The notes beneath the pieces are model-generated. The model worked only from the letters and a program-made list of their open reading frames with translations, made no database searches and was not told the DNA's origin. The position numbers and the translations under genes are program-made. Below are positions 433 to 17,999 of a stretch of 35,221 nt of DNA, one piece after another (within the stretch, counting starts at the first letter, position 1; every line of letters begins with the position of its first letter). Origin of the DNA: Rhodobacterales bacterium RIFCSPHIGHO2_02_FULL_62_130 (GTDB lineage: Bacteria > Pseudomonadota > Alphaproteobacteria > Rhodobacterales > Rhodobacteraceae); contig MHZT01000042.1 of assembly GCA_001828855.1 (NCBI GenBank), positions 1-35,221 of the forward strand, in the 5' to 3' direction.

Positions 433-1446
433 CTAATCGTCCCAGCGCATTTGGTTGGCCAAGGCGAAATCGCGAACGTTAATAGGTTTCCGGTGGGCCA
501 GATCGTTGCGCAAGTTTGCCAGCGCCGCAACCTGGTCCGCTTGCTCTCGAACCAAGACCCGGGTCAATTGCCGTCGCAGGCCACCCAGTTCGATATCCTC
601 GACGTTGACGACCCCAAGGCCCCTGAGATGCTCGTCCAGATAGAGATGCTTGCGATAGCGTTCGATCAACTTTTGACGGTGGCCCTCAATCCAGGGGAAA
701 AGAACCGACAGCTGGGACTTCCAGATACGATGTTTCAACTCGGTGACGTTTCCACGGTTAAGAAGATCTAGCGGACAGGCAAATGGACCTTTGCCGAAGG
801 TGGGCGTCGTCGCGACCGCTTCATCGGCGCGGCGCCGCAACCAGCCGAGCGGATCCAGGATGTCTTCGTCCCGCTGGCTGACCAAATCCGCCACCAAGTC
901 CAACCGCCAGCCGCAGAGCTCGACAGCGAGGTCCACGGCCATGCGCTGCAACAGATCGTTGCGTTCCGACGGTACGGCATATTCTGCCCAGATCATGGAG
1001 TCGGCCCGTCGCAGCCGCTTGGCCCAAGTCAATTGGCCAATTCCCGGAACTCTTGCATCGCCAAGGAACAAGATGGCCCCGCCTTCGCCTGCTTTGGCGA
1101 AAGAGGTCGCGAAATCGCTTAGCGCATGGGCCCAGCGCGCCAGATCGGCCGGGGCTAGGTGCTGTGCCTCGACCAAAAGCACGCGCCCCGAGGCCACGAG
1201 CTGCGCCATGGGCGCGCCGGCCAGCCCACAGGCCTCGCCCAGCGCGGCCAGGGGAAGCTCACCGGGTCTGGGCGCCAGCCGCTCGACAGTGACCGTGTCG
1301 CGCAGATGCGACACCAGCCGATCAGCCAATCCGGAAGGGGTCGAGGCATCGCTTGTGACGATGGCCCCGCCCTTCCAGACGAGGGGCTCGACCTCGGCCA
1401 AGAATTGATGCGCGGCAGGCAGCAACCAAGGGTCGGCCCCACGCAT
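433..1446 (-). CDS. 337-aa protein with HEPN-like C-terminal motif and degenerate ATPase-like N-terminus
   Basis: This is the last gene of the minus-strand operon. Its ATG overlaps the stop of the giant ATPase gene as TGATG, so translation is probably coupled. Residues about 25-200 look like a P-loop fold that has lost its Walker A: the expected loop reads SDASTPSG, while residues 88-97 (RVLLVEAQHL) sit where a Walker B strand would be, with VE in place of DE. The C-terminal ~110 residues are helical and charged. They carry R313-N-D-L-A-H318, the R-x4-H pattern of HEPN RNase domains, preceded by helices rich in Leu and Arg. HEPN domains act as RNases or NTP-binding modules in many toxin and abortive-infection systems. 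The inferred role is effector or regulatory subunit of the system. I do not recognise the full-length family. Confidence 0.7.
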   Translation of the reverse strand: MRGADPWLLPAAHQFLAEVEPLVWKGGAIVTSDASTPSGLADRLVSHLRDTVTVERLAPRPGELPLAALGEACGLAGAPMAQLVASGRVLLVEAQHLAPADLARWAHALSDFATSFAKAGEGGAILFLGDARVPGIGQLTWAKRLRRADSMIWAEYAVPSERNDLLQRMAVDLAVELCGWRLDLVADLVSQRDEDILDPLGWLRRRADEAVATTPTFGKGPFACPLDLLNRGNVTELKHRIWKSQLSVLFPWIEGHRQKLIERYRKHLYLDEHLRGLGVVNVEDIELGGLRRQLTRVLVREQADQVAALANLRNDLAHRKPINVRDFALANQMRWDD

Positions 1447-4400
1447 CAGGACCGCCTGGGTTCGTTACAAACCCGGTAGAGCAAGGCCCCTAAGGGCGCG
1501 AGGGCGATGGCAGAGGGTTCGGGCACCTGAAAGAGCCCCAGATCTGCCATCCGCGCGATCTCTTGCCTGGCGTCGGGGCTTTCGGCGGCCAAGAGGTTGA
1601 TCAATTCCTCTTGGTCTTGCAACTCATCGCCCTGCAGCAATTCGGCCGCGTTGCAGAACAGGGGCACGAGGCGGTCGGGCAGACCCACCTGGTTGGCCGA
1701 GAGGGTGACGCTCGCCCCTAGGTCGCGCAGCCGCGCCGCAAGGCCCTCGCGCCGCCCCTCGGCGATCAGGGGATCAAGCCTCGGGCGCAGTTGCCCTAGG
1801 ATCGCCGAGGCCCCGCCCGAGATCTCGAGCAAAGCCTCGCGCACTTCGGGCGTGTCAAGGAGAGGCAAGCCGCTGTCAGCAAGCCAGGCCCGCAGCATCG
1901 TGCGCTCCCACGGCTTGGCGCGAAAGACCCGGATCTCGGCCGGGATGCCGCGCGGCCAGACACGGGCCGCGACATCAGGGCCACCGACGATGACCGGAAG
2001 GAGCCGCCCTTCGCGGACACTTGATTGTGCAACAAGCCAGGTCAACCAATCCGGTTTGACGCTCTGGGCTTGCAAAACCAAGACCTTGCGCCCCTGCACC
2101 CGATCGACGAGTCGGCGTAGATCGGCCTCTTGACCACGGAAGACCTCGCCAGACAGGCGCCCCTTGCCGTCATGCCATCCTTCGGCCAGATCGGCCAGGA
2201 TCTGGGCCTGGTCGCCCCCGAGGACGGCCGGAGCTGCAATGACCAGCCGCAGCCCGGGAGCCTCGGTGTCGAACAGCGATGCCATCGACCGATCCGGCAA
2301 GGGGGAGCGGCGGTCGATATGCGGATCAGGGCCGACCCGCCGGTGATAATGGCTCGGGTCATAGTCGACCCGAGGCTCCTTTTCTGCGATCTGCAGGATC
2401 TCTTCGTCCAATTGCGCAAGTTGCCCCAGCATCTGCGCCACCTGGGCACCGCGCAGACCGTAAAGCCCCCGCGGACCTGGCAAGCGGATCAGGACGCCAA
2501 GATCGACCATTTCGTCCAGAAACGCCGGGAAATCGGCGCGACTGAGCTTTTCCTGACCCGCCGGCCACCAGATCTCGGCCTCACGCTGCACTTCATCGGC
2601 GGCCATCGCCCCGCCATCGGCATCGGCCGACAAGATTCGGTGCCGACCGAGGACCTTCGCGATCAGCTCGTAACGCGGGTCGAGGTTAAGCGTCCACTGG
2701 AACCGCTCGCGGATCTGGGCGTTTATTCCTTCGGAGGAAGGCCCTCGGAAGAGCTGTTCTTCCTTAAGCACCCAACGCGGCCCAGGCCCCTGCGGGCGGG
2801 ATTGGTTGGACAGCCCCTCGAGCAGGGCCTTCAAGAAGACCTGAATCAGCGAGGGATAAAAATTCACCCGCGTTAGCAGCGAATGGACGAGTTCGGGCCT
2901 TTCATAATCGAACCCGGCCGCCCGCATCGGCTCGACCACCAGGCGGCGCGCCTGCTGGCTGCTTTCGGGAGAGGTGTTCAAGGGCCCGATACAGATCGGT
3001 TTCGAGAGATGGACCAAGGGCGAATTCGGTGCCTTGGCCATCCGCTGAACATTGTGCAGGCCCGCAAAGACGACCTTGAAGCGCCGCTGGGTTTCTTCCA
3101 TCAGGTCTTTCAGGGGGTTCAGGTTCGGAAAACCACTGCGTGCCTCCGAGCTTAGGAAGAGGTCGGCCTCGTCGACCAGCAACAGGATCCGCCGCTCGCC
3201 GCTCTTATTCAACCAAGCCTTTATTGCGGCGCGGATGTCATCGAGGTTCTCGGCTGTCTTGGGAAGCACTTCGTCATCCAGGAGAACGCGACGGATTGCC
3301 GACCAAATCTGCGAGGCGGGTTGCACTGGGCCGCCGAATTCGTCGATCTTCAGATAATATGCGTGGCGCCCGGTGAGGGGTTGGTGGGAACGCTTGCGAA
3401 CGTGGTGCAAGAGGGCCGATTTCCCCAATTGGCGCCCGCCGTAGACGAGGCAACCGTCGGCGGTGGTGCTTTCTATCTGGGCAATCTCGGATTCGCGACC
3501 GAAGAACATCTCGACGGGGATATTGCCAGCACTGGTCGTGTAGGGCTGCAGATAGCCAAAGGGTGTGGCGCAGGCAAAGAGCCGCTGCAGCCAATTGCCG
3601 CCAGTGGTCAAGTACAGGACCTGGGCCTCGTCGATCAGCAGGACCGTCTGCTTGGCTTTGCGCATGGCAAGGCCAAAGCTTTCTCGCCGCGCCTTCGACA
3701 GGCGACCGAATACCAAGAGGACACAGGGGGAATTACGGCCGATCTTCGCCATCTCGGCGACCAATTGGGCATCTTCGACATGACGATGTGCCAAGAAGAC
3801 CGGGTAGCTGCCATTGGCTTCGCTGCCGAAGGCCGGAGGCAGGAACCAATCCCGAGCCGCCAGGCGGTCGGATTTCATCCACATCCAGCGCAATTGCGCC
3901 GAGAGCTGAGTCTCGCGCTCGATTACTACCGACGTGAAGCCCAGGCGCTCCATGAAGGACCTCAGGGCCGGACCGATGTCGCGGCTTCGGTCAAAGGAAT
4001 TTCGTACTGCCCTCCAATTCTCGTCCAACTCGACCGCGCGCTTGACCTCATGCTCTTCGAGCCCCCGGTAATTCAGCGGCCCCGCCTGGCCTCCGGCCTT
4101 CATTGCCGCCTGGATCGCCATGGTCTCGATATCGGAGGTCAGGGCGGCAACGAATCCAGGGTAGAAGGCGGCGAAATGATCCTCTTGGGCCTCGCCCGTC
4201 AGGGCGAAGCTCTGACCGTTCTGCAAGCGGATCAGAATGTCCTCGACCGCGATCGGGTCGCGGTCCTCCAAGGTCTCGGCCACATGTGCCGCCTCGGCCG
4301 AGAGCTGCAGATTACCGCGCTCGTGCAGACTGCGCGTCAAGCGCTCCAACGTCTGACGCTGGGTGGCGCGGATGCCCTTGCGGACACGGTCACGCAGGTG

Positions 4401-7139
4401 GCCGGCCTCGGACAGGGCCCGGGCCAGATGCGGAAAATCGGGCGGGATGACCGGGCTGCGCTGGTTCTCCTTCATCGGCAGCGCGAATTCCCCGTCGCAC
4501 TGCAGTGCCGCGTCGATCATGCCAAGGCGGTCGAGCCAAATCTGGATCTCTTGCGAGGTGGCGAGGTCGATGCTTTGCAGGGGCTCGAGATCGTGTCGCA
4601 GTCCGGTGATTTCCAACCGGGCCGCCTCGCGGGCTGTGTAACGCGCATTGTCCAGATCATTGCGGAAGCCTTGGACCTCGGCCGCAGTCAGGCGTCTCTG
4701 GCGTTCCAGCCGATCGAGCAACATCTCGACGGGCAGGATCGCGTTCTGCCCCAGGTGAAAGGCCAAGGCGCGGACCTCGTCGCGTTCGAAGTCGTCGGGC
4801 TGCTGCAAGGCACGGAAGAGGGCGAGGCGTTGCGCCTGGCGTTCTTCGAAGAAGGCCGCCCCCTCGGGCGCATAGGGCTGGCAGGGTCCCGGCAGGCGCA
4901 AGAGCGCCGCCTCCAACACCTCGGAGGGCCGGACGACGACCTGCGCGGCGCGTCCTTCGACCACGGCCAGGAAATCCGCCATCGCGCGGTCCAAAAGGCG
5001 CTGGACGGCGGCATCCACGCCGACCTCAGTGCCTGCCTCGCGCAGGGCCTTCGCGACTACCTTCTTCAGTTCGTTCACCGATGGTGCCAGTCGGGCCTTC
5101 TGGCTCATGTCGCCGTCCTGCTCGTCCAACCATGCCGCGCGCCAATCCAACAGCAATTCGGCCGCCTCGCGCAGCTTTCGGACGATCCAGTCCAAGGCCA
5201 TCCCCTTGATGGCATCGCGCTTGGGGCGACCGATCTCTTTCTCGGCGGCCACGACCTTGTCTTCGGCCGCCTTCTTGTCGGTTGCCAGGGGCAAGAGCCA
5301 GCCGAAAGCCTCCTCGACCTCGGCGATCCCGCCAACCTGGGCCGCCTCGAAGAGACGACCCAGGTCGCCGTGGGGATCGAGGAGCTTGTGCAAGATCAAC
5401 CCCGTCGGCGCATGCATGGTCTGGGCCCGGCGTGCGCCCGGAAGCCATTCCTGGATTGCTGAGAGCGCGCCCGGCAGGCGGCGCTGCTTCTCGACGCCGG
5501 CTAGGTCGGCCAAATCGGCAAGGCTCGGCTGCAGGTCGCGGCGCAGGTCGCGCAGCGGCGCCACGACGGAGGCAAAGCCCTGCAAGCCATCGGCCAGCGA
5601 CAGGGCGCCCAGATGGTCGCGCGCGTTGGTGTCGCGCGCCATCAAGGCAGGGCGCAAGAGCGCGGCCAGCGCCACCGACCGCGCCCGAAGCCCGGCTGCG
5701 GCTCCGCGCGCCTCGGCCGCCTCGACCTCGGCCATGGCCGCGGCGAGCCATTCGCCCAAGGTTTGCGCGGCGGCGTCGTAAGGTCCGGTCAAGACCTCGC
5801 TGGCGACCAAGGACTTGAGTAGACCCGAAGGCACAGGCGGCGTGAGGCCATTCGCCTCGGCAAGGTCGGAAAGATGCCAAGCCAAAGCCAAGTCGCCGCG
5901 GTCCAGCAGCTGCGTCATGACCTCGTCGATGGGCAGCCGTCCAGTCCAGCTGGCGGCTTGGGCCTCGGGTTCAGGTTGGGGATCGGTTGCGGTTTGAGGC
6001 TCGGGCAGCAGTATCCCAGGAGAGAAGGCGGCCTGAGCCTCAGCCGGTTCGGAGATGCGAGAGGCCTGTTCGACGGTCGGAGGAAAGTGGCGGTCGGGCT
6101 CGACGAGGGCAGGTTGGGCTTCGGGTTCGGGGGCGGCGGGCGCCAGCGGTTCGGGCTCTTCGGGGACGGGGTCGATGGCCTCTGGCTCAGTCTGACCGCA
6201 AAGCCCATGCAAGAGCGCTGCAAGCTCTTGAGTCGCCCGTGCCAAGTCCCCTTCTGCAGCGGCGGCTTCGCCTGCGCAGACCTCGGTGCGATCCAGCGCC
6301 TCGCCAGACCGCCGATCTCGCTCACGCCTTTCGGCAACGGTCGTAGCGGGGGTGCTGCGGATCGCTTCTTCCCGCGTCTCGGCTTGCGTCAGCCGCTCCT
6401 GTGCCGCGGCGGCCTGCGCCGTGCGTGCCTCGACCTCGGCGACCTTTGCCTCGACCTCGTGCAGGGCCGCGTCGTCCAGCCCGGAGAGATCTTCGCCCAG
6501 GTCGAGGTGGGAAATCGCCAGCCCAATCGCCGAGCGGCGCTGGTCAAGATCCGCTGCGCGTTCGTCTTCGGCGGCGGCGGTCTCGCAAGCGACCATAAGA
6601 TGCTCAGCCAGGACGACCAAGGCCCGCGCCCGTCCGGGATCGGGATGGTCCATCGCGGAGAGCACCTGTTGCATGCGCGCAACCAAGGCCAGCCAGTCCT
6701 GGCAATCGGCCGATTCGGGCTCTGCCTGGACCTCGGGCGTATCCGCCGTCAGCATGGGGGCGGCCCAAAGCTGGAAGACCTCACGCTCCAACTCAGGCCA
6801 GGTCGCGAGATCGGGCTGGATCGTCTTGCTGTCCTTGTCCCACAGCAGGCCCTTGATCCGCTCGTCCATCCAGCGCCAGGCGCGGTGGCTGAACGAGCGT
6901 TGATCCTTGGGCTTGGGAAAGGCCTGGAAGGCTGCGAAGAGAGCACGGCAAAAGGACGGGTCCGTCCGCATCCTCTCGAGCATCGCCGAATAGAAGACCT
7001 TGTCGTCGCGCAGCCCCGCTTTATCCAGCAGATCGACCTTCTCGGCCAAGCGTTTGCGGTCCGTCACGGCCAGTTGCCAGATCTCGGCAAAGATCTCCCA
7101 AGTCAGCTTGGGCTCTGCGCTGCCTACGTCGTCATGCAC
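1446..7139 (-). CDS. Giant (1897 aa) P-loop ATPase with coiled coil and Pro/Glu linker
   Basis: I start it at the GTG at 7139, which has GGAG eight bases upstream and lies 14 bases after the helicase stop; an upstream TTG at 7175 is less likely. Domains in order: an alpha-helical N-terminus; an Ala/Glu coiled coil (about 225-300); a low-complexity Pro/Glu/Ala linker (about 310-400); a long helical region (to about 1000); a segment with VLLIDEAQVLYL, then PFGYLQPYTTSAGNIP leading into FFGRESEI; and a P-loop domain with Walker A GGRQLGKS (about 1234-1241) and Walker B LLLVDEADLF. A winged-helix-like stretch follows, then a second ATPase-like but degenerate unit (VLVLQAQSV where Walker B would be). 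The order ATPase, winged helix, large helical arm recalls STAND or ORC-like signalling ATPases. I do not recognise the full-length family. It sits between the helicase and the HEPN-like gene, so it may be the sensor or scaffold of the system. Confidence 0.75.
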   Translation of the reverse strand: MHDDVGSAEPKLTWEIFAEIWQLAVTDRKRLAEKVDLLDKAGLRDDKVFYSAMLERMRTDPSFCRALFAAFQAFPKPKDQRSFSHRAWRWMDERIKGLLWDKDSKTIQPDLATWPELEREVFQLWAAPMLTADTPEVQAEPESADCQDWLALVARMQQVLSAMDHPDPGRARALVVLAEHLMVACETAAAEDERAADLDQRRSAIGLAISHLDLGEDLSGLDDAALHEVEAKVAEVEARTAQAAAAQERLTQAETREEAIRSTPATTVAERRERDRRSGEALDRTEVCAGEAAAAEGDLARATQELAALLHGLCGQTEPEAIDPVPEEPEPLAPAAPEPEAQPALVEPDRHFPPTVEQASRISEPAEAQAAFSPGILLPEPQTATDPQPEPEAQAASWTGRLPIDEVMTQLLDRGDLALAWHLSDLAEANGLTPPVPSGLLKSLVASEVLTGPYDAAAQTLGEWLAAAMAEVEAAEARGAAAGLRARSVALAALLRPALMARDTNARDHLGALSLADGLQGFASVVAPLRDLRRDLQPSLADLADLAGVEKQRRLPGALSAIQEWLPGARRAQTMHAPTGLILHKLLDPHGDLGRLFEAAQVGGIAEVEEAFGWLLPLATDKKAAEDKVVAAEKEIGRPKRDAIKGMALDWIVRKLREAAELLLDWRAAWLDEQDGDMSQKARLAPSVNELKKVVAKALREAGTEVGVDAAVQRLLDRAMADFLAVVEGRAAQVVVRPSEVLEAALLRLPGPCQPYAPEGAAFFEERQAQRLALFRALQQPDDFERDEVRALAFHLGQNAILPVEMLLDRLERQRRLTAAEVQGFRNDLDNARYTAREAARLEITGLRHDLEPLQSIDLATSQEIQIWLDRLGMIDAALQCDGEFALPMKENQRSPVIPPDFPHLARALSEAGHLRDRVRKGIRATQRQTLERLTRSLHERGNLQLSAEAAHVAETLEDRDPIAVEDILIRLQNGQSFALTGEAQEDHFAAFYPGFVAALTSDIETMAIQAAMKAGGQAGPLNYRGLEEHEVKRAVELDENWRAVRNSFDRSRDIGPALRSFMERLGFTSVVIERETQLSAQLRWMWMKSDRLAARDWFLPPAFGSEANGSYPVFLAHRHVEDAQLVAEMAKIGRNSPCVLLVFGRLSKARRESFGLAMRKAKQTVLLIDEAQVLYLTTGGNWLQRLFACATPFGYLQPYTTSAGNIPVEMFFGRESEIAQIESTTADGCLVYGGRQLGKSALLHHVRKRSHQPLTGRHAYYLKIDEFGGPVQPASQIWSAIRRVLLDDEVLPKTAENLDDIRAAIKAWLNKSGERRILLLVDEADLFLSSEARSGFPNLNPLKDLMEETQRRFKVVFAGLHNVQRMAKAPNSPLVHLSKPICIGPLNTSPESSQQARRLVVEPMRAAGFDYERPELVHSLLTRVNFYPSLIQVFLKALLEGLSNQSRPQGPGPRWVLKEEQLFRGPSSEGINAQIRERFQWTLNLDPRYELIAKVLGRHRILSADADGGAMAADEVQREAEIWWPAGQEKLSRADFPAFLDEMVDLGVLIRLPGPRGLYGLRGAQVAQMLGQLAQLDEEILQIAEKEPRVDYDPSHYHRRVGPDPHIDRRSPLPDRSMASLFDTEAPGLRLVIAAPAVLGGDQAQILADLAEGWHDGKGRLSGEVFRGQEADLRRLVDRVQGRKVLVLQAQSVKPDWLTWLVAQSSVREGRLLPVIVGGPDVAARVWPRGIPAEIRVFRAKPWERTMLRAWLADSGLPLLDTPEVREALLEISGGASAILGQLRPRLDPLIAEGRREGLAARLRDLGASVTLSANQVGLPDRLVPLFCNAAELLQGDELQDQEELINLLAAESPDARQEIARMADLGLFQVPEPSAIALAPLGALLYRVCNEPRRS

Positions 7140-7153
7140 TGCAATTTCTCCGT

Positions 7154-10100
7154 TCAATTCTTGCCCCCATCCCAAACCAAGGGCTCCTCGCCCCCTTCGA
7201 TCCAGAACTCGGCTCGCGCCAATCGGCGGGCCTGCATTTCGGGATCGGCACGGAAATCATGGCGAATTTCCGACCCGACGGCGCGCCAGGCGCCGAAACC
7301 TTGGTCGAAGAGCAGGCGATAGCGCCGCCCGTCGGTCAGCGTGAAGGCCAGCTCTCGACGGTGGACCATCTCGGCTTTGTGCGCGGCGAGCATGACCCGG
7401 GCCCGAGGCAGCATGGCCTGCAGCACCGCACTGCGGTCGCGGTCTTGGGCAAAGCTGTCATAGACGCGCCAAGGGTCAACCCCCCGCTCGAGTTTGGGGG
7501 CAAGCTGGACCGAGATCGAGGCCTTGCGCGCGCCGGGCATCGCATCCAGGACCTCGGCCAAGAGCAAGAGGGTCACGGGCGTCAAGAGGTAGCGGTCGCA
7601 GTAGTCCAGCGCGGCCACTCCATTACTGCGCATCGCCGCCACTTCCAGGGGCAAGGCGGCCGCGATCCACGACCAGAATCGGGCGCCGAAGCCCTTCGCC
7701 GGGCCGTGCAGCTGCGCCCCAGGGGTCAGGACATGGCTCGTCCCGCTGGACAGGGCGACGAGCCGCTCGGTCGAGATCGCCACCTTGCCGACCTCGAAGG
7801 TCATCGGCCCGATGACGAGGGGAGCCTCGGCCCCCTGCCCCCAATCTTCGCCAACCAAGCTCTCGGGCCCCAGCGCCCCGGCGATGCCGCGCCTTTCGCC
7901 CAAGCGTAGTTCGAGCTCGGCCAGGACGGGCTGTCCCCCCGCCATGGGCAGCACGGTCAGGCGGAAGATCCGGGCATGCTGGGCCAAGCGGTGCAACGAG
8001 AGGCGCGTCGCCAGGTCGAAGCCCGCATGGGTCAGCGCGGCCTCGGGCAAAGCGATCTCGACCTTGACCCCGCCCGCGGCCAGGGCGGCCAGGCGCTTGG
8101 CGAGCGGCCACTCGGCAAGGTTCCACTCCGAGGGGGCACCATGGAGGAAAATACAGAGGCGCCCCAAGTTGCTCGAGCGCGCGAGGTCGTCGATGACTCG
8201 CGCCAGAGGACTGCCGAGATAGCGCGAACCCGCGCCCCAGACCTTCGCTTCCTCGGGCAGGTTCAGCCGCCCTACCAGGACGCGTGCCAGCTCCAACCCG
8301 CGGATGCGGTCGATCGCCAAGTCCCTTTGGCTTAGATCGGGTTGCAGGATGCAGGCGGGGCAGCCAAGCGCACAGACCTCGGGGCAATCGAGGCGAAGCG
8401 CGGCGGCCTCCAGCATCCCAGCAAAGACATCGGGTTCCGCCAGCCTTGCGACCAAGCCGGCGCCACCGGCCGCACGGTCATGCAGCCACAGCGACACGGG
8501 CGCCCGCCGCCCGGCGCCGGTAGGCCCCGACGCCCCGGCACCGACCGCAATTTCGCGGGCCTCCACGCCCAGCGTTTCGGCCAGGCTCTCGCGCAGGGCG
8601 GCAGCCAGAGCCACAGCAGCGGGCGACGTCGCCTCCACAAGCTGCAATTCGAAGACGTCGGTGCGGGTAGATTGCGCCAGGTGGACGTGGCGCTGAACCC
8701 GATGGACCGCCGTGTAACCGCCCGCGCAATGGCCATCCTCCGCCGTTTTGCCTGACCGGACAAGGGGGAAATGCCGCTGGATCGCCCTGGGCAAAGGCGC
8801 ATCGGCCCCAGCTTGGGGTTGCTCCATCGGCTCGGCCCGTCCGCAATCGAGGCAGATGGCAAAGCCGCCGCCGTGCTTTCCACTGGCTCTTGTCACGATC
8901 TGGCCCGCCGGATCGTGTCGGAAGCGACCCATAGAGGGGTCGGGGAGAGCCGACCAGCCGACGCCCGCTGCACTTGCCCTTGGAGCGACGAAGGGGCTGT
9001 GGGCAAGGGCTTCGTAGCCCGTATGGGGCGCCTTGGCCGTCACGAAGCCCGCCGGCCGCAAAATTTTGACCCAGGTCACCGAAGTGGCGCCGCAGTCGGG
9101 ACAGTTCTCCGGGGCCTGTGCAGTCGTCACCCCGAAGCCATGGCAAGCCGCACATTCCCAAAGTGTGCGCAAATCCTCGAGTCGCGAAGCGTCCTTGTCC
9201 GCGCTCCAGGCCGGAAGTACGCCCTCCGACTGCCAGACCAGACCGTCGATGACCACCTCTGACCCCGGAGCGTATTCACGGATCGCCTGATGCAACTCCC
9301 GTGAGGCACCTTTGGGCACGAAGCTCTTTCGGTCGTCCTCGTCATCCTTTGCCTGGTGGGCGGGGATAAAGCTGACGACATCCGTCGGAAAGCCATAGGC
9401 TGGGGTAAAACCTCGCCGGGCCAGCTCTCCCAGAAGGAACTCACCAGCAAGCCGTTTCGCCCGACGCGTCAGGGCTTGGGCCAGCTCTTCGGAGGCCCCA
9501 TCTCGGCGACCAATCAGGGCATCAAACTCACGGCGCCAGGCCGCATCGAGCCGCTCTAGCGCCTGAGTGGTCTGGGCCACCAGCTCGGCGGCCGGTTGGT
9601 CTTGGAGGATCGTGCCGCGCGTCAGTTCGCAGAGAGAGGCGATTAGGTCGGCCTCCTCGGCCCAAGCGCCGCGCAGGTCGGCGAGGAAAGCCGAGATCGG
9701 AGCCTCGCCCGGGTGGGGCAGCCCATCGACAACCACGCCGAAAAAATCCCCGGCCTCCGCCTTCAAGGTCATACCGCCAGCCAAGCCGATCCAGCGTGCC
9801 AATAGGGCTGCATTGACGTGACGCTGAACCAGACTGGCCGAATTGAGCCAGACCTTAGGCGCAGCGATGGGCCGGGTTAGGAATGCGCCGGGGTCAGAAA
9901 AGGCTTTTGCGTCCAATGGCAGGTCGCGGCAGAAGGTCAGGCCGAATGCCCAGGGCTCGCGCCGCCGCCCTGCCCGGCCGACCCGTTGGCGATAGTTCGA
10001 CAGGGCTGGGGGCACGTTGGCATTCACCACAAGTTGGACGGCGGCCAAGTCCACGCCCATCTCCATGGTCGTCGAACAGTTAAGCAGGTTGATTTCGCCC

Positions 10101-13100
10101 AGGTTGAAGCGGGTCTCGTAGGTCTTCAGCACTGCACGGGAGATTTGGGCGGAATGTTCCTGCGCGCGAATGAAGGCCGGGAAAGCGGCTATACGGTCAT
10201 GCAAATCGCTCCATAACCCTCGCCGACGCAGGTCTGCCACCGCGTGATCGGCCCCGGTCCAATCGCGCAGCGCAACGCGCTCGGACAAAGTCAGGCCCGA
10301 GGCGCGGGCCAAGGGCAGGCGCGGGAAGCGCAGCCGGGTCATCGGCCGCCCGGGTTCGAAGGGCGATGACCCGCCAACGGAATGGGCGATAGGACGACGG
10401 GTCAAAGGGCAGAACCAGACCTCGCCCACCCGCGCGAGGGCGGCCTTCGAGAAGTCCAGCCGGAAGCCCGCATCGACGCGTAAGCAGGCCTTCGACGTGA
10501 TGGCTCGCCACAGCCAATCTAGGACCTCGGCCGCGCGGTCCTGGTGAAGCGGCTGGCTGGGATTCCGGCCGATGACGGTCCAGACATGCGCGACCAGGCG
10601 CCGGAAGGCGCGGTTCTCGGGCCGGGCGGTCGGCCAAGTGCGTGCGTACACGCTCCGGCGATCCTCGGCCGATATGCTTGGCGCATAGATCGTGTTCACC
10701 CGCCCGAAGCGCGGCGAGACGATGGCAACCATCCAGTCGGGGATCTCGACGGCCAAGGTGTCGCGAAATACCATGTCCACGGCGGTCATGGCCAGGCCGA
10801 TTCCGGTCTCGGCATCGATGCCTTCGGGCCGTTGTCCCTGCCGGATCAAGCTTTCCAACGCGGGAAAGACCAACCGAACGAGGCCCATGGTCTCGGGGTT
10901 GTTCTGGACTTTCGGACGGCGGAACATCTCGCGGAACAGGAAGGTCCGGGCCAGGTTCTCGGGCTGGTCCCACAGCCGGTTGCCCTCAGCGCGCGGGCGC
11001 CAGACCTCGCCCGCAAAGGACTTGAGGTCGCCATGACCGGCAAAGCGCTGGACGGCGTCGGGCCAGGCGATAGGACCGGAGGCCATTGCCAAAAGCGCAT
11101 CTCTCTGGTCCCGGAAGGCGGCTAGGGGTCCCGCGACGGCCGGAGCCAGGTCTAGGGCAGCCTGGAGTTGGGCGATGTTGCGGTCCAGATCCCGCAGTTT
11201 GTCCGGGTCCGCGCCTTGGCCCTCTTCCTGCACTAGGTGATAAAGGAAGGCCCGCGTAAGGTTGCGCTCGGCCTCTTGCTGCAGCTTGGCGGCCAGGCGA
11301 GCGACGCCTTGGCGGCTGTCGGTGAAGCTGATGGCTTTGCGCCCGCCTGCCGGAAGACCGGGGCGATCTTCGGGCGGGGTCAGATCTTCCAGCGCCTGGG
11401 GCAGGGCATTAGCCAAGAAGAAGGCCGGGCCGAAACGCAGATCCTGCAGGGCTTGCGTCGCGCCCTCGGCGCAGCAGCGGCGGTCGGCCGGGTCCTCGAT
11501 CAGGATGACGGCGACGGTCGTCAGGCCATCAGGCGGGGCGTTGTCGAAGATCCGTCGGTCATGGGCAATCCGGACCCGGGCACCCTGGGCACCAGGCGCA
11601 GCGATCAGGGACGGGCCGGTTTGGGAGCCTGCCTTGACGGCTTCCTCAGGATCATCGGGTTCGGCGTCCAGGGCGAAATCGTCGCCCTCGGCGGACTGGA
11701 TGGCGGCGAGGCGGGGCTCGGCCCCCGGGATGACCTCGGTGCGCAAATAGGGCAGGCCACAGCTGCGACAGGTCACGACCTCGGCCATGGGCGTGCCGCA
11801 GCCGCAAGCCGGACGGGGCACCAACGAGAGAGCGCCGAAGGGCCAGGCCGCGCCCTCGGCTGTCAGCTGGACGCTACGCTCAGGGCAATCGGGGTCGATG
11901 CAGGCCCATACCCCGCTTTGCGCTCTGTGGAAGAGATGGGCGCGCCAGGGCAGGAGGCTCTGGCTGCCCGATCTCGCGAGAGCGACGGCGTCGAGCACCT
12001 GCTGCGCCTCGGCCAAGGCCGTGGCGTCGGCCCAGAAGTGCTGGGCGACGGCGCCCAGGCTTACGTGGCCTGTTGACATCGCCTGGCGCAGGCTTTGCAC
12101 CCGGGGGTGAGGTGCCAGCTTAATCCAAAGGGCTGCCGGATCCATCCCGCCCAACGTCGCCGCGTCGATCGGCTCATCCGGGCCGCGCTCCCCGAAATCC
12201 GGGGTTTGCTCGCGGCCCGAAACCACCTCGATCCGCCCCAGGTCCTGCCCGGCGAGAGCCGCGGCGAAGGCGGTCAACTGCTGCCGCGTCTCGGGTCCGC
12301 TGCCGATGGTCGCCGAGGTCGCCATCAGCCGCGTCTGGTCGGCGGCCGCGCCGAAGGCTTCGCGCACCCGCCGCAGCAAAAGCGCCATCTCGGCCGCCTG
12401 CGAGCCGACATAGCTATGGGCCTCGTCCAAGACGATCCAGCGCAGCGCACCCTTGCTCTTGTCCAGGATCTTCCGGTCACCCTCGCGCAAGAGCAAGTAT
12501 TCCAACATCGTGATGTTGGTGACCAGGATATCGGGCGGGTTGGACCGGATGTCGGCGCGGTTGGTAAGCTCGACCTTGGTCGAGCGTCGACCCGCCTTGA
12601 AGGCCGTCTCGGGTGTGTCGCCGTTGTAAAGCGCAAAGCGGACCCGCCCTCCGAGGCCCTCGGCCCAAGCCGCAAGCCGCTCACGCTGACTGTCGATCAG
12701 GGCGTTTAAAGGATAGAGCAGGATCGCCTGGACCCCTCCGCCCGGGCGGCGATGACGCAGGATGTCGTTCAAGATCGGGATCAGGAAGCACTCGGTCTTG
12801 CCCGAGCCTGTGCCCGAGGTCACGAGGACGGATTTCTGCTCGGCGATGCTGGCCTCCCATGCGCGGTGCTGATGCGCCCAAGGGATCATCTCGCTCGGCA
12901 TCTGGTAGTCTTCGGCTGTCGCCAGTGCCGTCACGAGGTCAGGCTCCAGCAGCTTACCGGACAGGGCGCCGAGCGATTTTGGCCCGGGTTCCCAGGCCTT
13001 GGCCGCCTCGAAGACCGGATCGGCGAGAAGCGAGCCCTCCTGACCGGGTGGGACCGAAAGGCGCGCCGCCAGAGCCGCGTTGAAGCCGGGGCTTGCCACC

Positions 13101-13177
13101 CTTGCGCGTGAGATGACTGCCGCAGCGCCCCGCTGGGACAGGCGGATCAGGGCTTCGTTAAGATGCGAAGCAGTCAT
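7154..13177 (-). CDS. DUF1998-type DEAH-box helicase, DruE-like (2007 aa)
   Basis: A superfamily 2 helicase expected to translocate on DNA in the cytoplasm. The start chosen is the ATG at 13177, with AAAGGA just upstream and 10 bases after the preceding stop. Visible motifs: Walker A TSGTGSGKTE (120-129), DEAH box VLDEAH (D251), SFTDSRQG, and motif VI QRVGRAGRR (1064-1072). Between motifs II and VI lies an insertion of several hundred residues with a Cys-rich zinc-binding patch (about 456-480). A second Cys pair set starts at C1342. The DUF1998-like four-cysteine cluster is C1598, C1602, C1606, C1609, preceded by GGAGLV. The last ~350 residues may be a phospholipase-D-like fold. Size and architecture match DruE of Druantia better than DrmA/DrmB of DISARM. 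It is tightly spaced with its neighbours. Helicase identity is certain; the Druantia label is inference. Confidence 0.9.
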   Translation of the reverse strand: MTASHLNEALIRLSQRGAAAVISRARVASPGFNAALAARLSVPPGQEGSLLADPVFEAAKAWEPGPKSLGALSGKLLEPDLVTALATAEDYQMPSEMIPWAHQHRAWEASIAEQKSVLVTSGTGSGKTECFLIPILNDILRHRRPGGGVQAILLYPLNALIDSQRERLAAWAEGLGGRVRFALYNGDTPETAFKAGRRSTKVELTNRADIRSNPPDILVTNITMLEYLLLREGDRKILDKSKGALRWIVLDEAHSYVGSQAAEMALLLRRVREAFGAAADQTRLMATSATIGSGPETRQQLTAFAAALAGQDLGRIEVVSGREQTPDFGERGPDEPIDAATLGGMDPAALWIKLAPHPRVQSLRQAMSTGHVSLGAVAQHFWADATALAEAQQVLDAVALARSGSQSLLPWRAHLFHRAQSGVWACIDPDCPERSVQLTAEGAAWPFGALSLVPRPACGCGTPMAEVVTCRSCGLPYLRTEVIPGAEPRLAAIQSAEGDDFALDAEPDDPEEAVKAGSQTGPSLIAAPGAQGARVRIAHDRRIFDNAPPDGLTTVAVILIEDPADRRCCAEGATQALQDLRFGPAFFLANALPQALEDLTPPEDRPGLPAGGRKAISFTDSRQGVARLAAKLQQEAERNLTRAFLYHLVQEEGQGADPDKLRDLDRNIAQLQAALDLAPAVAGPLAAFRDQRDALLAMASGPIAWPDAVQRFAGHGDLKSFAGEVWRPRAEGNRLWDQPENLARTFLFREMFRRPKVQNNPETMGLVRLVFPALESLIRQGQRPEGIDAETGIGLAMTAVDMVFRDTLAVEIPDWMVAIVSPRFGRVNTIYAPSISAEDRRSVYARTWPTARPENRAFRRLVAHVWTVIGRNPSQPLHQDRAAEVLDWLWRAITSKACLRVDAGFRLDFSKAALARVGEVWFCPLTRRPIAHSVGGSSPFEPGRPMTRLRFPRLPLARASGLTLSERVALRDWTGADHAVADLRRRGLWSDLHDRIAAFPAFIRAQEHSAQISRAVLKTYETRFNLGEINLLNCSTTMEMGVDLAAVQLVVNANVPPALSNYRQRVGRAGRRREPWAFGLTFCRDLPLDAKAFSDPGAFLTRPIAAPKVWLNSASLVQRHVNAALLARWIGLAGGMTLKAEAGDFFGVVVDGLPHPGEAPISAFLADLRGAWAEEADLIASLCELTRGTILQDQPAAELVAQTTQALERLDAAWRREFDALIGRRDGASEELAQALTRRAKRLAGEFLLGELARRGFTPAYGFPTDVVSFIPAHQAKDDEDDRKSFVPKGASRELHQAIREYAPGSEVVIDGLVWQSEGVLPAWSADKDASRLEDLRTLWECAACHGFGVTTAQAPENCPDCGATSVTWVKILRPAGFVTAKAPHTGYEALAHSPFVAPRASAAGVGWSALPDPSMGRFRHDPAGQIVTRASGKHGGGFAICLDCGRAEPMEQPQAGADAPLPRAIQRHFPLVRSGKTAEDGHCAGGYTAVHRVQRHVHLAQSTRTDVFELQLVEATSPAAVALAAALRESLAETLGVEAREIAVGAGASGPTGAGRRAPVSLWLHDRAAGGAGLVARLAEPDVFAGMLEAAALRLDCPEVCALGCPACILQPDLSQRDLAIDRIRGLELARVLVGRLNLPEEAKVWGAGSRYLGSPLARVIDDLARSSNLGRLCIFLHGAPSEWNLAEWPLAKRLAALAAGGVKVEIALPEAALTHAGFDLATRLSLHRLAQHARIFRLTVLPMAGGQPVLAELELRLGERRGIAGALGPESLVGEDWGQGAEAPLVIGPMTFEVGKVAISTERLVALSSGTSHVLTPGAQLHGPAKGFGARFWSWIAAALPLEVAAMRSNGVAALDYCDRYLLTPVTLLLLAEVLDAMPGARKASISVQLAPKLERGVDPWRVYDSFAQDRDRSAVLQAMLPRARVMLAAHKAEMVHRRELAFTLTDGRRYRLLFDQGFGAWRAVGSEIRHDFRADPEMQARRLARAEFWIEGGEEPLVWDGGKN

Positions 13178-13187
13178 GGTTTTCCTT

Positions 13188-13485
13188 TCAGGCCAGCGCG
13201 AGGCCAAGGGGGAGGGCTGTATCGAACCAATGCGGATCGGCGTGGCGCAAGGCCAAGAGGTTCAGCGTCTCGGAGGGGGACAAAGCCGGGCGCAGACCGC
13301 TGACGACCTCGGCCACGAAGAGCGGGGCGACCAAGAGCGGCGCGAGGACCTGCGCCACCGTGCCAGGCGGCACGAGGTGACGGAGCGGAAGCGGCAGAGC
13401 GCCCTGCGGCACCATGGGACCGCGCGCGGCAAGCTGACGGGCGGCCTCTTCCAGGCGCTTAGGATTGCTGGGTGCGCCGAGGGGG
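13188..13485 (-). pseudogene. C-terminal fragment of the IS-split YjiT/DruH-like gene
   Basis: This open frame of about 98 codons ends in TGA at 13188, 10 bases before the helicase start. It begins at the left end of the IS3 element. Read with one copy of the GGGG target duplication removed, it joins in frame to the gene fragment on the other side of the IS: ...GKQL, then PLGAPSNPKRLEEAARQL. It is therefore the original C-terminus and not a separate gene. At present its only upstream in-frame ATG lies inside the IS end (13512-13514), and an internal ATG follows about 30 residues in, so it may be poorly translated or not at all. Confidence 0.85.
13482..13485. repeat. IS3 target-site duplication (GGGG), left copy
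   Basis: GGGG at 13482-13485 matches GGGG at 14822-14825 on the other side of the element. A 4-bp rather than 3-bp duplication is supported because only removing 4 bases restores the split gene's frame; removing 3 gives a stop after about ten residues. Confidence 0.75.
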
Positions 13486-13509
13486 TGAACCGCCCCGGGT
13501 TTACCGGAG
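13486..13509 (+). repeat. IS3 left terminal inverted repeat
   Basis: A 24-bp sequence that is the perfect reverse complement of the right end at 14798-14821. Confidence 0.95.
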
Positions 13510-13536
13510 TGCAAAACTCTCGGAGAATTGCCCGTT

Positions 13537-13878
13537 ATGGAACAGACATCAAAGAAGAGAACCGCGAAGCCGTATTCACCTGAGTTCCGCGAACGCGCGG
13601 TGCGATTGGCGTTGGAACACCGCGATGAGTATCAAAGCGAAGCTGCGGCGCTGACGGCGATCGCGGGTAAATTGGGCTGTTCGCCGGACAGCCTTCGCGT
13701 TTGGATGCGACAGGTCCAGCGCGATGGCGGCGAACGGCCGGGACCTACCAGCGTCGAGATCGCGCGGATCAAAGAGCTTGAACGCGAGAACCGTGAACTT
13801 CGACAAGCCAACGAGATCTTGCGCAAAGCCTCCGCGTATTTTGCCCAGGCGGAGCTCGACCGCCCGTTTCGCAAATGA
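13537..13878 (+). CDS. IS3-family transposase OrfA
   Basis: A 113-aa helix-turn-helix protein (HTH_Tnp_1 type). It binds the IS ends and supplies the N-terminus of the OrfAB transposase. The ATG at 13537 is preferred over a TTG at 13528; CGGAGA lies upstream. The pattern YSPEFRERAVRLALE is followed by a C-terminal leucine-zipper-like helix (IKELERENRELRQANEILRK). Its stop overlaps the orfB start as ATGA, and orfB lies in the -1 frame, as expected for OrfAB made by programmed frameshifting. No classic A6G slippery run is visible in the overlap. Confidence 0.93.
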   Translation: MEQTSKKRTAKPYSPEFRERAVRLALEHRDEYQSEAAALTAIAGKLGCSPDSLRVWMRQVQRDGGERPGPTSVEIARIKELERENRELRQANEILRKASAYFAQAELDRPFRK

Positions 13879-14780: not shown

Positions 14781-14797
14781 TCGTTGAACAAATCACC

Positions 14798-14821
14798 CTC
14801 CGGTAAACCCGGGGCGGTTCA
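14798..14821 (-). repeat. IS3 right terminal inverted repeat
   Basis: A 24-bp perfect reverse complement of 13486-13509. It supplies the premature stop codon (14819-14821) of the interrupted host gene. Confidence 0.95.
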
Positions 14822-17593
14822 GGGGAGTTGTTTGCCGTCGCTTCCGAGGGCGAGGGGGGCAAGACCATGGGCGTGCATGCCAAGGCCCAGATGGCCTGAC
14901 AATTCGGGGCGCAGTTCGACAATCCGCCCGGCGGTCCGGGCGATGCTGGATTGGGCTAGGTCACGCGTTGCCGCAGGGTCGAACCCTGCGAGGGCCAATC
15001 CGGCCTCGACCCAGGCCAGTCCCGCGCCAATGCCTTTCGCCCAGGCCGAGATAGGAACGGCTGGCCACCAGATCGGGGCCTCGGTTTCTAGCTCGAGCAT
15101 GGCGGCGACCTCCGGAAGCTGGCTTCGAAGCAGCAGGGCGACTGCGACCTCCGGGGCCGCACCCAGGGCCTGGACCTGATCCAATGAGCCACAATCACCC
15201 CCCGCCCGCGCGGCCTCCATAACTTCGACCAGATCCAGCCAGCCCGGATGCCCGGGCTCCTTCATCATTTGCGCCATCTGATCCAGATAGCCCGCGATCC
15301 TCTGGTCCCGATGGCTAAAGGGCCGGGGCTTGGCACAGAAGGGGAAGGGCCGCATCACGCCCCGCGCCGAACTGCCTTGGACGAACCAGAGCGCCTCCCC
15401 CTCTACCAACCAGGCTGCAAGGTCGAAGAGCCCTTGCGCTGTGACCTGCCGTCTAAGCACCGGCGCGGCCAGGGTCGAGGCATGCAGCTGGACCGGCGCA
15501 TCGCCGAGGTCGACCCGCAGCCCATTAGGTCGCACTTCCCAATCGTGGCGCGAGATCTTGAGCAGCGGAGTGGGACGATCGGTCGCCAGGGTCAAGTCCA
15601 CCCTCCCATCTGCCCCCGTCAGCGCCTGAACCTGGGCAAGCAGGGACCGCCAGGCCGCCAAACGGATCATGCCGCTCTCGACGAAGGCCAAGGACCGGGG
15701 CGCCTTCGGCATCCGGAGCTCAACGGCCCCCCTGCCTGGCAGGATCCCATACCAGCCCGGCAAGGCGCGCAAAGACAGCTGACGCGGCGCGGTCAAGCGC
15801 CGACCGGCCGGGTCCAAGAGCAAGGGCTCGCGCGAGGGCCAAGGTTTCCGCAGGCGCAGAAGGCCCCCTTGGGGGTCGAAAAACTCCAGCACCACCTCGC
15901 CCCGGTCGGAGCATGTGGCATCCAGCGTGATCGCGGCAGCGCCTTGGGGCAGGACATGGCGGCTCCCATCGAGCAGGACGGCAAGGCGCCAGTTGAGGGG
16001 CAGACCTCGCACCTCGATGGCCAGGTTCTGCCCCGCTTCGCGCAGCGTCACATCAAGATCTGCGGGCAGAAAGACCGCCCGAGTCGAGGCGATCCGCTCG
16101 CCCCCCTCGACCCAATCGAAACGCCGAATCCCTAGACCGCGCCCCTCGGCGACTTGCACCGCCGCCGTGACATCGCGCATGGACAGCTCGGCCCGCGCGC
16201 CAAGGAAGCGCGGCGTGCCGATATAGGCAGGCAGGCCGCCCTCGACCCGCACCAATCGCGCCAGCTCGGCCAGAACGAGGAACCGCGCACCCGGCTCGTC
16301 TTCTTCGGAACCGGTCACGATGTCGACCAACTCATTGCCGACGATGACGCGCCCACGGCCCGAAATCGGCCAAACCTTTCCGCCCGGCCCCGGAAGTGGA
16401 GGGTCCAGTTGCAGACCATCGCTCACGACTGGCTCCACGGAGGATAGGAGCCACAACCGGTCGCTTCGAGTGCGCCCGCCGACGGAGGGAACCAAGGCCC
16501 GGACCTGCCCCGAGCCCTCGCTGCGCCAGAGGAGGGCGGATTCGCCGGGTTCTGGCAGGCCGGGATCGATGACCACCTCGCCCAGGGCCCTGCCGTCGGC
16601 ATAGGCCGACAGGACCGCGGGCGCCCACGGGTACAGCGCCAGCTTAAGATCGCGCGCGGCCTCGACCCGCCAGCCGCCCAGATCGGGATGGGCCCGCAAG
16701 GCCGAGCCATCCGCCGCCACAAGTCGCAGAACAAACCCCCGGTCCACCTTCGGCAGAAGACCATAGGGCAAAAGCCCGCCACGCAGGATCCGCAAGACTC
16801 CGGTCCAGGCCGTTCCCCCGGCCGAGGGAAGTAAGAGCCGCTGCGCTAAGGCTCCGCTTACAGGACGTTCGATCTGCCGCGCCAGGGCCGGCAAGAGAAG
16901 CGCCTGGCGCGCCTCCTGCGAGAGGCGCAAGGGCAACTTCTCGGCCCAGCCCGAGCGATTGCGGTCTAGCCAGAGCAGGGCGGCATCAATATCAATTCGC
17001 GCGGGAAGGTCGCGGCGCAGATCGACGAAGGCCAGTGCGAGGTCGCGCAGCAAGGCGCAGCTTTCCTGTCCTTGCAAGGCTGCGGGCAGCCCACTGCTTC
17101 TGAAGGCCGCAATCCGGTCTAAGCCCGCGACGTCAGTCAGACCCAGGGCCTCGCGCTCAATGTCGGCGATGGCACCCAACAGCGCGGCCGCATAGCCGCT
17201 GTCGCGCGACAAAAAGGCATCAGGCAAACCACCCTCGGCCAAGAGCGAATAAAGAAACAGCGTCTTGCCGTCGCTGGCACGCCTGCGTAGCGGGCGCTTC
17301 CAGAAGTCCAGTCCCTCCGAGACCCATTGGCGGCCCAAGTCTTGGCGATGCTGAATACCGAGATGCTCGAGCAAAAAAAACCAAGACAAGTTTCCAGCCC
17401 CATGATTGCGCCTGATCTCCTCCGAGGCCCAAAGGACGAAGAGGGGGGCATAGAGGGCCAATGGCCGGTCAGACCCTACAGCGGCGGCCAAGTCGGCAAA
17501 TTCGGCATCGGTGGCAGCATACGCATGCAAAGGACGTCGATCCGGAGCCGTAAGCCCGTGTCGCTTCAAAATTAGGTAGATCGGCGACGTCAC
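14819..17593 (-). pseudogene. YjiT / STY4851-ECs_5259-like protein (probable DruH), N-terminal 924 aa, split by IS3
   Basis: The GTG at 17593 is chosen as start because AGAGGG lies just upstream and it follows the 127-aa gene by 22 bases; a longer frame from 17683 would overlap that gene. The N-terminus (LKRHGLTAPDRRPLHAYAATD, then EFADLAAAV) is what I recall for the YjiT/STY4851-ECs_5259 family, which lies beside a DUF1998 helicase in enterobacterial genomic islands and probably corresponds to Druantia DruH. The body is a mix of helical and beta-rich segments with no catalytic motif I can name. The IS3 end provides the stop after ...GKQLP. The undisturbed gene would have continued for 98 more residues (13188-13485), giving about 1021 aa. 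Possible residual function of the truncated protein cannot be judged. The family call is from memory. Confidence 0.75.
14822..14825. repeat. IS3 target-site duplication (GGGG), right copy
   Basis: Matches 13482-13485 on the other side of the IS3 element. Confidence 0.75.
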
Positions 17594-17615
17594 TGCCGCC
17601 CTCTTTGGCCAAGAA

Positions 17616-17999
17616 CTATCTTTGATTGCAACAACATCCCTCACACGACGAAGAGCTGACCGCCCAAATGTTCGCGAAACCAAGCTCTATTCCGGATAAG
17701 CCTTCAAGAATCTTGTCCAGAAGGCAATAGGCGTTGTTGGTCACCCTTCGCGGAGACAATTCTGAAAAGGTCGGCTCCCAGATAGTTTCCAGCCGACCGA
17801 TGCCCGTGTGCAGAATTTTGGCCAGCGTCCCGGCCTTTGGCCCGTCGAGCAACAGGATGACCGGCCCATCCCCCAACAGGGCAAGGACGGCACGGCTGCC
17901 TCGGTCAACAATCCGGCCACCCCGCACAAGCACATGCGCCTCAATCTCAGTGGCTTCAGAACGGTCATCCTCGAAATCAAACGGGAAAAGATATGACAT
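17616..17999 (-). CDS. 127-aa uncharacterised protein, first gene of the minus-strand operon
   Basis: The ATG at 17999 is the only start before an in-frame stop seven codons upstream. The ribosome-binding site is weak. The protein opens with an acidic stretch (FDFEDDRSEATEIE) followed by alternating short hydrophobic strands (AHVLVRGGRIV, AVLALLGDGPVILLLDG), suggesting a small beta-rich fold. It ends in an unusual Cys-rich tail (SSSSCEGCCCNQR) that could bind metal or could be the product of a frameshifted end. It overlaps no neighbour if the next gene starts at 17593. I do not recognise the family. Position suggests a small accessory or regulator of the system. Confidence 0.6.
   Translation of the reverse strand: MSYLFPFDFEDDRSEATEIEAHVLVRGGRIVDRGSRAVLALLGDGPVILLLDGPKAGTLAKILHTGIGRLETIWEPTFSELSPRRVTNNAYCLLDKILEGLSGIELGFANIWAVSSSSCEGCCCNQR

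What the first reader, a model, noticed from the sequence alone, without database searches (positions are those of the whole stretch)
433..17999. Five-gene operon: Druantia-III-like core plus a giant ATPase and a HEPN-like protein, a candidate extended or new defence system
All five genes face the same way with overlaps or gaps of about 25 bp or less. The helicase (DUF1998 type, 2007 aa) and the YjiT/STY4851-like protein look like the DruE/DruH pair. The downstream 1897-aa ATPase and the 337-aa HEPN-like protein, coupled by TGATG, and the 127-aa leader protein are not parts of Druantia type III as I know it. The neighbouring MobF relaxase and IS scraps fit an accessory island. The combination of DNA helicase, signalling-type ATPase and putative RNase is a plausible sense-and-kill design.
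Basis: partly seen in the sequence, partly recalled or inferred. Interest (0 to 1): 0.8.

Follow-up and report, generated by a model that had tools for sequence, protein, structure and literature searches.

The report
Druantia defence operon with RNase module
A bacterial anti-phage operon of a known kind (Druantia III) carries two further linked genes, a giant ATP-driven switch and a probable RNA-cutting toxin, which travel together as a pair and recur beside related defence helicases, although in this genome one core gene is cut by a jumping gene.

Summary
The core observation holds. The helicase is DruE of Druantia III and the YjiT/STY4851 protein is DruH. Downstream lie an intact 1.9-kaa STAND/ORC-type AAA+ ATPase and a 337-aa protein with an AAA+-like half lacking a P-loop and a probable HEPN half with a conserved Rx4H motif. 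Corrections: DruH is split by an IS3-family element (13486-14821), and no relatives of the 127-aa leader were found. DruH-DruE-ATPase-HEPN recurs, e.g. in Rhodobacter capsulatus, Haematobacter and Tabrizicola. The ATPase-HEPN pair also follows a Druantia II locus and sits beside DruH-DruE in other orders; more often it has no Druantia beside it. A sister ATPase clade is tied to another YprA-type helicase without HEPN. Gene trees agree best within DruH/DruE and within ATPase/HEPN, with at least two re-joinings, so this is two modules, partly co-inherited. Best reading: Druantia attacks DNA, and the STAND-like ATPase gates a HEPN RNase as a fail-safe. The pair's window proteins hit no PADLOC 2023 model and no NCBIfam 2026 model above cut-off, and my paper searches showed no description. 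New variant of a known kind; function is inferred, not shown.

The parts
433..1446 (-). HEPN protein (337 aa): N-terminal AAA+-like region without P-loop, C-terminal probable HEPN domain with R313NDLAH318
   Evidence: Rx4H in 53 of 55 family rows, the other 2 are gapped there; 0 of 45 rows have GxxxxGK[ST]; AF2 model pLDDT 95.1; PDB and viral-library neighbours are ORC, RuvB and clamp-loader AAA+ proteins at low TM; Pfam HEPN_Swt1 in 21 of 45 members, best E 3.1e-4, none for P0001 itself
1446..7175 (-). Giant STAND/ORC-type AAA+ ATPase (1897-1909 aa): long N-terminal region, GRxxE, Walker A GGRQLGKS, Walker B DEAD, further C-terminal domains
   Evidence: AAA_22 8e-11; motifs across 47 rows; AF2 of residues 1000-1909 pLDDT 91.6; Foldseek neighbours p97, ORC/Cdc6, TnsC, Avs3, Apaf-1, NRC4 at low TM
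7154..13207 (-). DruE, Druantia type III helicase (about 2007 aa), with MrfA Zn-binding domain
   Evidence: PADLOC PDLC00037 1818.7 bits; DEAD, Helicase_C, MZB
13188..13514 (-). C-terminal piece of DruH cut off by the IS
   Evidence: matches residues about 946-1050 of intact DruH of L054, L055, L056
13486..14821 (+). IS3-family element splitting DruH (orfA 13528-13878, orfB 13875-14780)
   Evidence: 24-bp inverted repeats; HTH_Tnp_1 and rve; 90% identical full-length copy elsewhere in the genome
14819..17683 (-). DruH (YjiT/STY4851 family), main N-terminal piece; similarity to intact relatives begins at residue 35-43, so the true start probably lies downstream of the listed TTG
   Evidence: NF038336 170.1 bits; PADLOC DruH3; 41-43% identical to DruH of L054-L057
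17616..17999 (-). 127-aa ORF upstream of DruH; not judged a part of the system
   Evidence: no significant relatives

Best explanation
A Druantia III system (DruH sensor/nuclease plus DruE helicase-nuclease) operonically joined to a separate two-gene fail-safe module. The giant STAND/ORC-type AAA+ ATPase would be the switch: on infection, or when Druantia is engaged or overwhelmed, it binds ATP and changes state. Its partner would dock through an AAA+-like region that lacks a P-loop and be released or dimerised so that its HEPN domain cleaves cellular or phage RNA, stopping growth. Shown by sequence: family identities, intact ATPase and HEPN motifs, pairing, gene order, recurrence and re-joining of the modules. 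Inferred: docking, RNase activity, what triggers the ATPase, and that DruHE feeds it. In this genome the Druantia arm is probably impaired, because DruH is split by an IS.
For: DruE and DruH assignment. HEPN directly downstream of the ATPase in 50 of 93 ATPase loci, gaps -238 to +19 bp by longest ORF. ATPase and HEPN trees agree, r 0.92-0.95. Rx4H present in every family row that covers it, 53 of 53; ATPase motifs conserved. DruH-DruE-ATPase-HEPN in relatives. Joined to Druantia in other ways: L058 DruF2-DruG2-DruE2-ATPase-HEPN; L006 and L132 ATPase-HEPN-DruH-DruE; L092 convergent. The modules are partly co-inherited: cross-module r 0.58-0.64 within clade A without L058, 0 or 1 of 2000 permutations as high. 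Sister ATPase clade fixed behind another YprA-type helicase (subtype tested in one locus, L077). In the family sample 3 of 4 genomes with a strong HEPN hit have DruE3 linked, one of them (G715) across a contig break. Analogy: HEPN with ORC/STAND-type ATPases and helicases in BREX-related systems (passages of PMC12839542; PMC3710099).
Against: No activity was tested. In 31 of the 47 surveyed loci with HEPN no DruE-like gene stands in line with the pair. DruE3 loci often lack the ATPase: absent in 4 of 7 assessable loci of the family sample, and in 3 of 4 assessable loci of the class sample (G229, G138, G107; G133 is cut on that side). In the class sample DruE3 occurs in 5 and HEPN in 2 of 385 genomes and only the window has both. 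Trees conflict between the modules for L056 and L058. DruH-DruE is described as a two-component system that defends without such genes (PMC13316683, start of abstract and passages).
Confidence: 0.55

Rival explanations
1. Two independent defence systems that merely share an operon in a defence island: Druantia III and a free-standing ATPase-HEPN abortive-infection system, each with its own trigger.
For: The pair often has no DruE in line (31 of 47 loci with HEPN); DruE3 loci often lack the ATPase; trees agree better within than between modules, and L056 and L058 conflict.
Against: Juxtaposition in more than one order and with Druantia II as well as III; 4-bp overlaps of DruE and ATPase in L061, L062, L064; partial co-inheritance; the sister ATPase clade is fixed to a helicase.
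Confidence: 0.3
2. Guard or addiction arrangement: the ATPase normally restrains the HEPN toxin, which is freed when phage proteins disable Druantia or host functions, PrrC-like.
For: ATPase and HEPN are tightly paired; HEPN RNases that back up restriction enzymes are a published theme (passages of PMC3710099; PMC12839542).
Against: Nothing here shows that HEPN is toxic alone; the pair often stands with no Druantia gene in line in the stretch seen.
Confidence: 0.12
3. A decaying relic: the window locus no longer works because DruH is split, and the other ORFs persist by chance.
For: IS inside DruH with both pieces left, one at each end.
Against: True at most of this copy; its DruE, ATPase and HEPN ORFs are open throughout and relatives with four unsplit genes exist, L054-L057.
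Confidence: 0.03

Closest known systems
Druantia type III (DruH-DruE)
   Same: DruE3 and DruH models hit; same gene pair and order
   Different: two further co-directional genes; DruH split in this copy
Druantia type II (DruM-F-G-E; composition recalled and from passages of PMC8565338)
   Same: locus L058 has DruF2-DruG2-DruE2 followed by the same ATPase-HEPN pair
   Different: the window has DruH and DruE3 instead
BREX-related type 1 / Hma systems (DUF499 ATPase, often with HEPN, helicase, methylase), after passages of PMC12839542
   Same: helicase plus ORC/STAND-type ATPase plus HEPN RNase
   Different: no DUF499 hit, no methylase among the operon proteins, YprA-type helicase; HEPN on a separate chain
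STAND NTPases such as Avs3 and Apaf-1
   Same: GRxxE motif, Walker A/B, among Foldseek neighbours at low TM
   Different: effector encoded by a separate gene
CoCoNuT systems (PMC11090510, passages)
   Same: NTPase with HEPN effector; can share superoperons with Druantia III
   Different: those use McrB-type GTPases; no such domain among the Pfam hits here

Membership tests
Druantia type III | DruE of subtype III | tested here: met
   PDLC00037 1818.7 bits, residues 14-2006
Druantia type III | DruH (YjiT family) beside DruE | tested here: met
   NF038336 170.1 bits, cut-off 150; family present, gene split
Druantia type III | Intact DruH gene | tested here: not met
   split by an IS in this copy; unsplit in L054-L057
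Druantia type III | Only two genes | tested here: not met
   ATPase and HEPN follow in the same direction
Druantia type III | Anti-phage activity | not testable with these tools
   -
HEPN RNase superfamily | Rx4-6H motif | tested here: met
   RNDLAH; 53 of 55 rows, the other 2 gapped there
HEPN RNase superfamily | Recognition by a HEPN profile | tested here: inconclusive
   HEPN_Swt1 in 21 of 45 members, best E 3.1e-4; P0001 itself none
HEPN RNase superfamily | HEPN fold by structure | tested here: inconclusive
   confident helical C-terminal half, but the best whole-chain matches fell on AAA+ proteins
STAND / ORC-type AAA+ | GRxxE, Walker A, Walker B | tested here: met
   47 of 47 rows keep G1226, R1227, GGR..LGK and DExD; E1230 in 45 of 47
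STAND / ORC-type AAA+ | C-terminal repeat sensor and fused effector | tested here: inconclusive
   no repeat domain in the Pfam hits; residues 1-999 were not folded
BREX-related type 1 (Hma) | DUF499 ATPase | tested here: not met
   no DUF499 among Pfam hits of P0002 at E up to 1
BREX-related type 1 (Hma) | DNA methylase in the operon | tested here: not met
   no methylase hit among the operon proteins

The most novel reading that the evidence does not exclude
The ATPase-HEPN pair is an uncatalogued, widespread defence module (the pattern scan of one genome per species found 491 stretches encoding ATPase relatives, some perhaps the same gene twice) that plugs into different helicase systems (Druantia III, Druantia II, and by its sister clade an unnamed three-gene system), turning DNA-restricting helicases into triggers of RNA-cutting cell arrest.
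Probability: 0.45. Interest if true: 0.82.

Novelty: new variant of a known kind. Interest (0 to 1): 0.68.

Why it matters
Druantia III is described as a two-gene DNA-targeting system. A recurring ATPase-HEPN module behind it, and behind Druantia II, would mean that Druantia can come with a built-in RNA-targeting or suicide arm, and that a large family of giant STAND-like ATPases has a probable role. It gives a direct test: whether a HEPN active-site mutant changes Druantia protection from abortive to non-abortive. The sister clade also points to a candidate three-gene helicase system with no name that I found.

Tried and rejected
The 127-aa leader as a component: no relatives. The ~1040-aa protein of the sister clade as a distant DruH: hhalign probability 0.1, rejected. 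Co-occurrence in the class sample: only the window has both DruE3 and HEPN. L102, where one ORF holds ATPase and HEPN parts, looks like a deletion chimera (the ATPase runs from its core into the middle of the HEPN protein), so I do not use it as fusion evidence. L129 was flagged as DruE upstream, but this is a 347-aa match of 223 bits overlapping the ATPase ORF and I do not count it. Known structures by sequence: only chance-level hits, apart from a sigma factor brought in by one row, L008. Low tree agreement between DruE and ATPase/HEPN (r 0.20-0.35) is mostly due to the DruE2 of L058; without it r is 0.58-0.87, so I dropped a first reading of near-independent modules. Phylogeny caution: the ATPase tree is a quick search with long-branched deep rows, and the positions of L006, L092 and L132 are unsure. 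Some bins may be mislabelled (L073, titled Chloroflexi, is nearly identical to Salipiger L074).
Full report
What is there. On the minus strand, in order of transcription, lie a 127-aa ORF (17616-17999), DruH (14819-17683 plus a C-terminal piece at 13188-13514), DruE (7154-13207), a giant ATPase (1446-7175) and a 337-aa protein (433-1446). DruE is full-length Druantia III (PADLOC PDLC00037, 1818.7 bits). DruH passes the NCBI YjiT/STY4851 model (170.1 bits, cut-off 150) and hits PADLOC DruH3 models. P0001 and P0002 hit no PADLOC 2023 model at E up to 1 and no NCBIfam 2026 model near its cut-off (best E 0.14 and 0.03). Of the relatives scanned in PADLOC, the HEPN proteins of L054, L005 and L010 and the ATPases of L054 and L005 hit nothing at E up to 0.01; the ATPase of L077 has one weak hit (PDC-M57B, 0.0054).

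A 1336-bp IS3-family element (13486-14821, opposite strand) has 24-bp perfect inverted repeats and GGGG on either side; its two ORFs hit HTH_Tnp_1 and rve. It lies inside DruH. The main piece matches intact relatives up to about residue 930-953 of about 1040-1060, and the 108-aa piece matches the last ~100 residues. A 90% identical full-length copy sits on contig C8. The 127-aa leader has no relatives and I exclude it.

The ATPase. Pfam finds AAA_22 at 1241-1378 (8e-11). In 47 aligned rows Walker A (GGR..LGK), Walker B (DExD) and a GLHxVxR stretch are invariant; a GRxxE motif just before the P-loop keeps G and R in all 47 and E in 45. That GRExE is a STAND signature is recalled knowledge. The AlphaFold2 model of residues 1000-1909 has pLDDT 91.6. 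Foldseek lists p97, ORC/Cdc6, TnsC, Avs3, Apaf-1 and NRC4 among its neighbours, all with low TM-scores, which fits an ORC/STAND-type AAA+ but proves no closer kinship. Residues 1-999 are uncharacterised.

The HEPN protein. The model has pLDDT 95.1. The six PDB chains at E <= 0.001 are AAA+ proteins, among them ORC and RuvB, query TM 0.26-0.35, and clamp loaders are among the best hits in the viral library; none of 45 relatives has a P-loop pattern, so the N-terminal half is probably an AAA+ domain that cannot bind ATP in the usual way. The C-terminal half carries RNDLAH. R313 and H318 are present in 53 of 55 family rows, the other two being gapped there. In a 45-row alignment only E254, R257, R313 and H318 are invariant. 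Pfam HEPN_Swt1 is matched by 21 of 45 members (best E 3.1e-4) and DUF4145, listed as a HEPN family in a passage of PMC3710099, by 7 (best E 0.011); P0001 itself matches none. So HEPN is well supported by motif, moderately by profile and not by structure match.

Neighbourhood survey. A pattern scan of one genome per species gave 491 stretches encoding ATPase relatives; the best 80 were returned (L054-L133), plus 2 viral contigs (L134, L135). I labelled ORFs with profiles built from the window proteins; PADLOC subtypes of DruE were checked only for the window, L058 and L077. In all, 47 of 82 hold a HEPN-labelled ORF. From plasmids, Methylocystis parvus (L006) has ATPase-HEPN-DruH-DruE, whereas Thiodictyon (L005) and Salinibacter (L007) have the pair with no DruE in the stretch fetched. 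By automatic gap count 50 of 93 labelled ATPase loci (plasmids, some G loci and the window included) have HEPN directly downstream; split ORFs make this a lower bound. Record titles of loci with the pair and no DruE include Acidobacteria, Cyanobacteria, Myxococcota, Planctomycetes, Gemmatimonadota and Mycolicibacter; bins can be mislabelled.

Module structure. In the ATPase tree (91 rows) the window sits with L054-L057 (support 100), inside a 17-row clade (98) that holds all 11 placed DruE3-operon rows, L058 and 5 others (L060, L066, L068, L075, L102), sister to a 20-row clade of the 1646-aa helicase type. Tree distances agree strongly for DruH-DruE (r 0.95-0.98) and ATPase-HEPN (0.92-0.95). 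Across modules r is 0.82-0.87 with L006, L092 and L132 in and L058 out, and 0.58-0.64 with all four out (0 or 1 of 2000 permutations as high). With L058 in, DruE against ATPase or HEPN falls to 0.28-0.35 with all 15 rows (327 and 251 of 2000 permutations as high) and 0.20-0.32 with 12, because L058 has DruE2. So the pairs are partly co-inherited, with clear exceptions: Haematobacter L056 groups by ATPase and HEPN with L055/L057 (100/100 and 100/99) but by DruE with L061/L064 (100/100); L058 (Druantia II) and L062 (Druantia III) are ATPase and HEPN sisters.

How often. In 345 sampled genomes of the family, 21 have a DruE-model hit at E <= 1e-60; by my reading 10 are DruE3-type, whole, split or partial. 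Next to these the ATPase is present in 3 (window, G686, G715), absent in 4 (G634, G545, G717, G027) and not assessable at contig ends in 3 (G621, G034, G043). HEPN hits: 6 of 340 (a nearly equal sample), of which 2 are 18-21-bit scraps; of the 4 strong ones, 3 are DruE3-linked (G715 across a contig break) and one, G498, is not. In the class sample DruE3 at over 1600 bits occurs in 5 of 385 and HEPN at E <= 1e-8 in 2 of 385, and only the window has both; of the other four DruE3 loci, three show no ATPase and G133 is cut on that side. So the union is real but a minority form of Druantia III.

Literature. PMC13192584 (abstract, sections 5 and 13, passages): DruH a likely sensor with nuclease activity, DruE a helicase-nuclease; HEPN 0 times. 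PMC13316683 (start of abstract, passages): DruH-DruE as two components, HEPN 0 times. PMC12458937 (abstract, sections 5, 8, 9, legends, passages): YprA helicase classes ARMADA, BRIGADE, TALON; HEPN and AAA 0 times in the main text. PMC8565338 (passages): PADLOC's neighbour screen gave Druantia IV (DruE, DruF, DruL). Searches listed no paper that I recognised as describing this pair; I judged most entries by title and abstract start. Figures, supplements and papers outside the library were not seen. Closest parallel: DUF499 ATPase with HEPN and helicase (passages of PMC12839542 and PMC3710099).

Mechanism. DruHE acts on DNA, as published. The ATPase is inferred to be a nucleotide-driven switch, and the HEPN protein its RNase output, docked by its AAA+-like half. 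The trigger is unknown: DruE-bound DNA, a phage protein, or failure of Druantia. That the pair often stands without Druantia argues that it has its own sensing ability, perhaps in the ATPase's large N-terminal region. I put 0.55 on a coupled fail-safe and 0.30 on independent systems sharing an operon.

Noticed in passing
L008:10489-17694: A cyanobacterial relative of the giant ATPase (Brasilonema plasmid) carries a sigma-70 factor (regions 1.2, 2, 3, 4) at its N-terminus, followed by a gene annotated as helicase; a possible transcription-linked version.
   Followed up: partly
L065, L067, L069-L074, L076-L085, L099: Recurring set of ~1040-aa protein, ~1646-aa DruE-like helicase and ~2030-aa ATPase, no HEPN; in the one example scanned (L077) the first protein has no PADLOC, Pfam or NCBIfam hit, and an alignment of 10 of them is not DruH by hhalign. 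A candidate unnamed defence system.
   Followed up: partly
L044:16977-18587, L009:17841-19748, L010:17379-18968: HEPN-family proteins with a C-terminal AAA_33 kinase-like domain (below cut-off in L010); possibly RNA end processing.
   Followed up: partly
L147 (G000:C37) 8412-14351: The same genome has a second DruE-like helicase (1979 aa) with a 1086-aa gene upstream and no ATPase or HEPN label in the 20 kb held.
   Followed up: partly
L137:9986-13015, L138:7205-10210: Two DruE3 loci without the ATPase carry instead a ~1000-aa gene with a weak type III restriction enzyme match.
   Followed up: partly
19390-22722: TrwC/MobF-type relaxase next to the operon, then, by my reading of the translations only, a glycerol uptake and catabolism cluster (23138-34692).
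   Followed up: partly
L102:10037-15262: One ORF joins the ATPase core to the middle of a HEPN protein; looks like a deletion chimera.
   Followed up: partly
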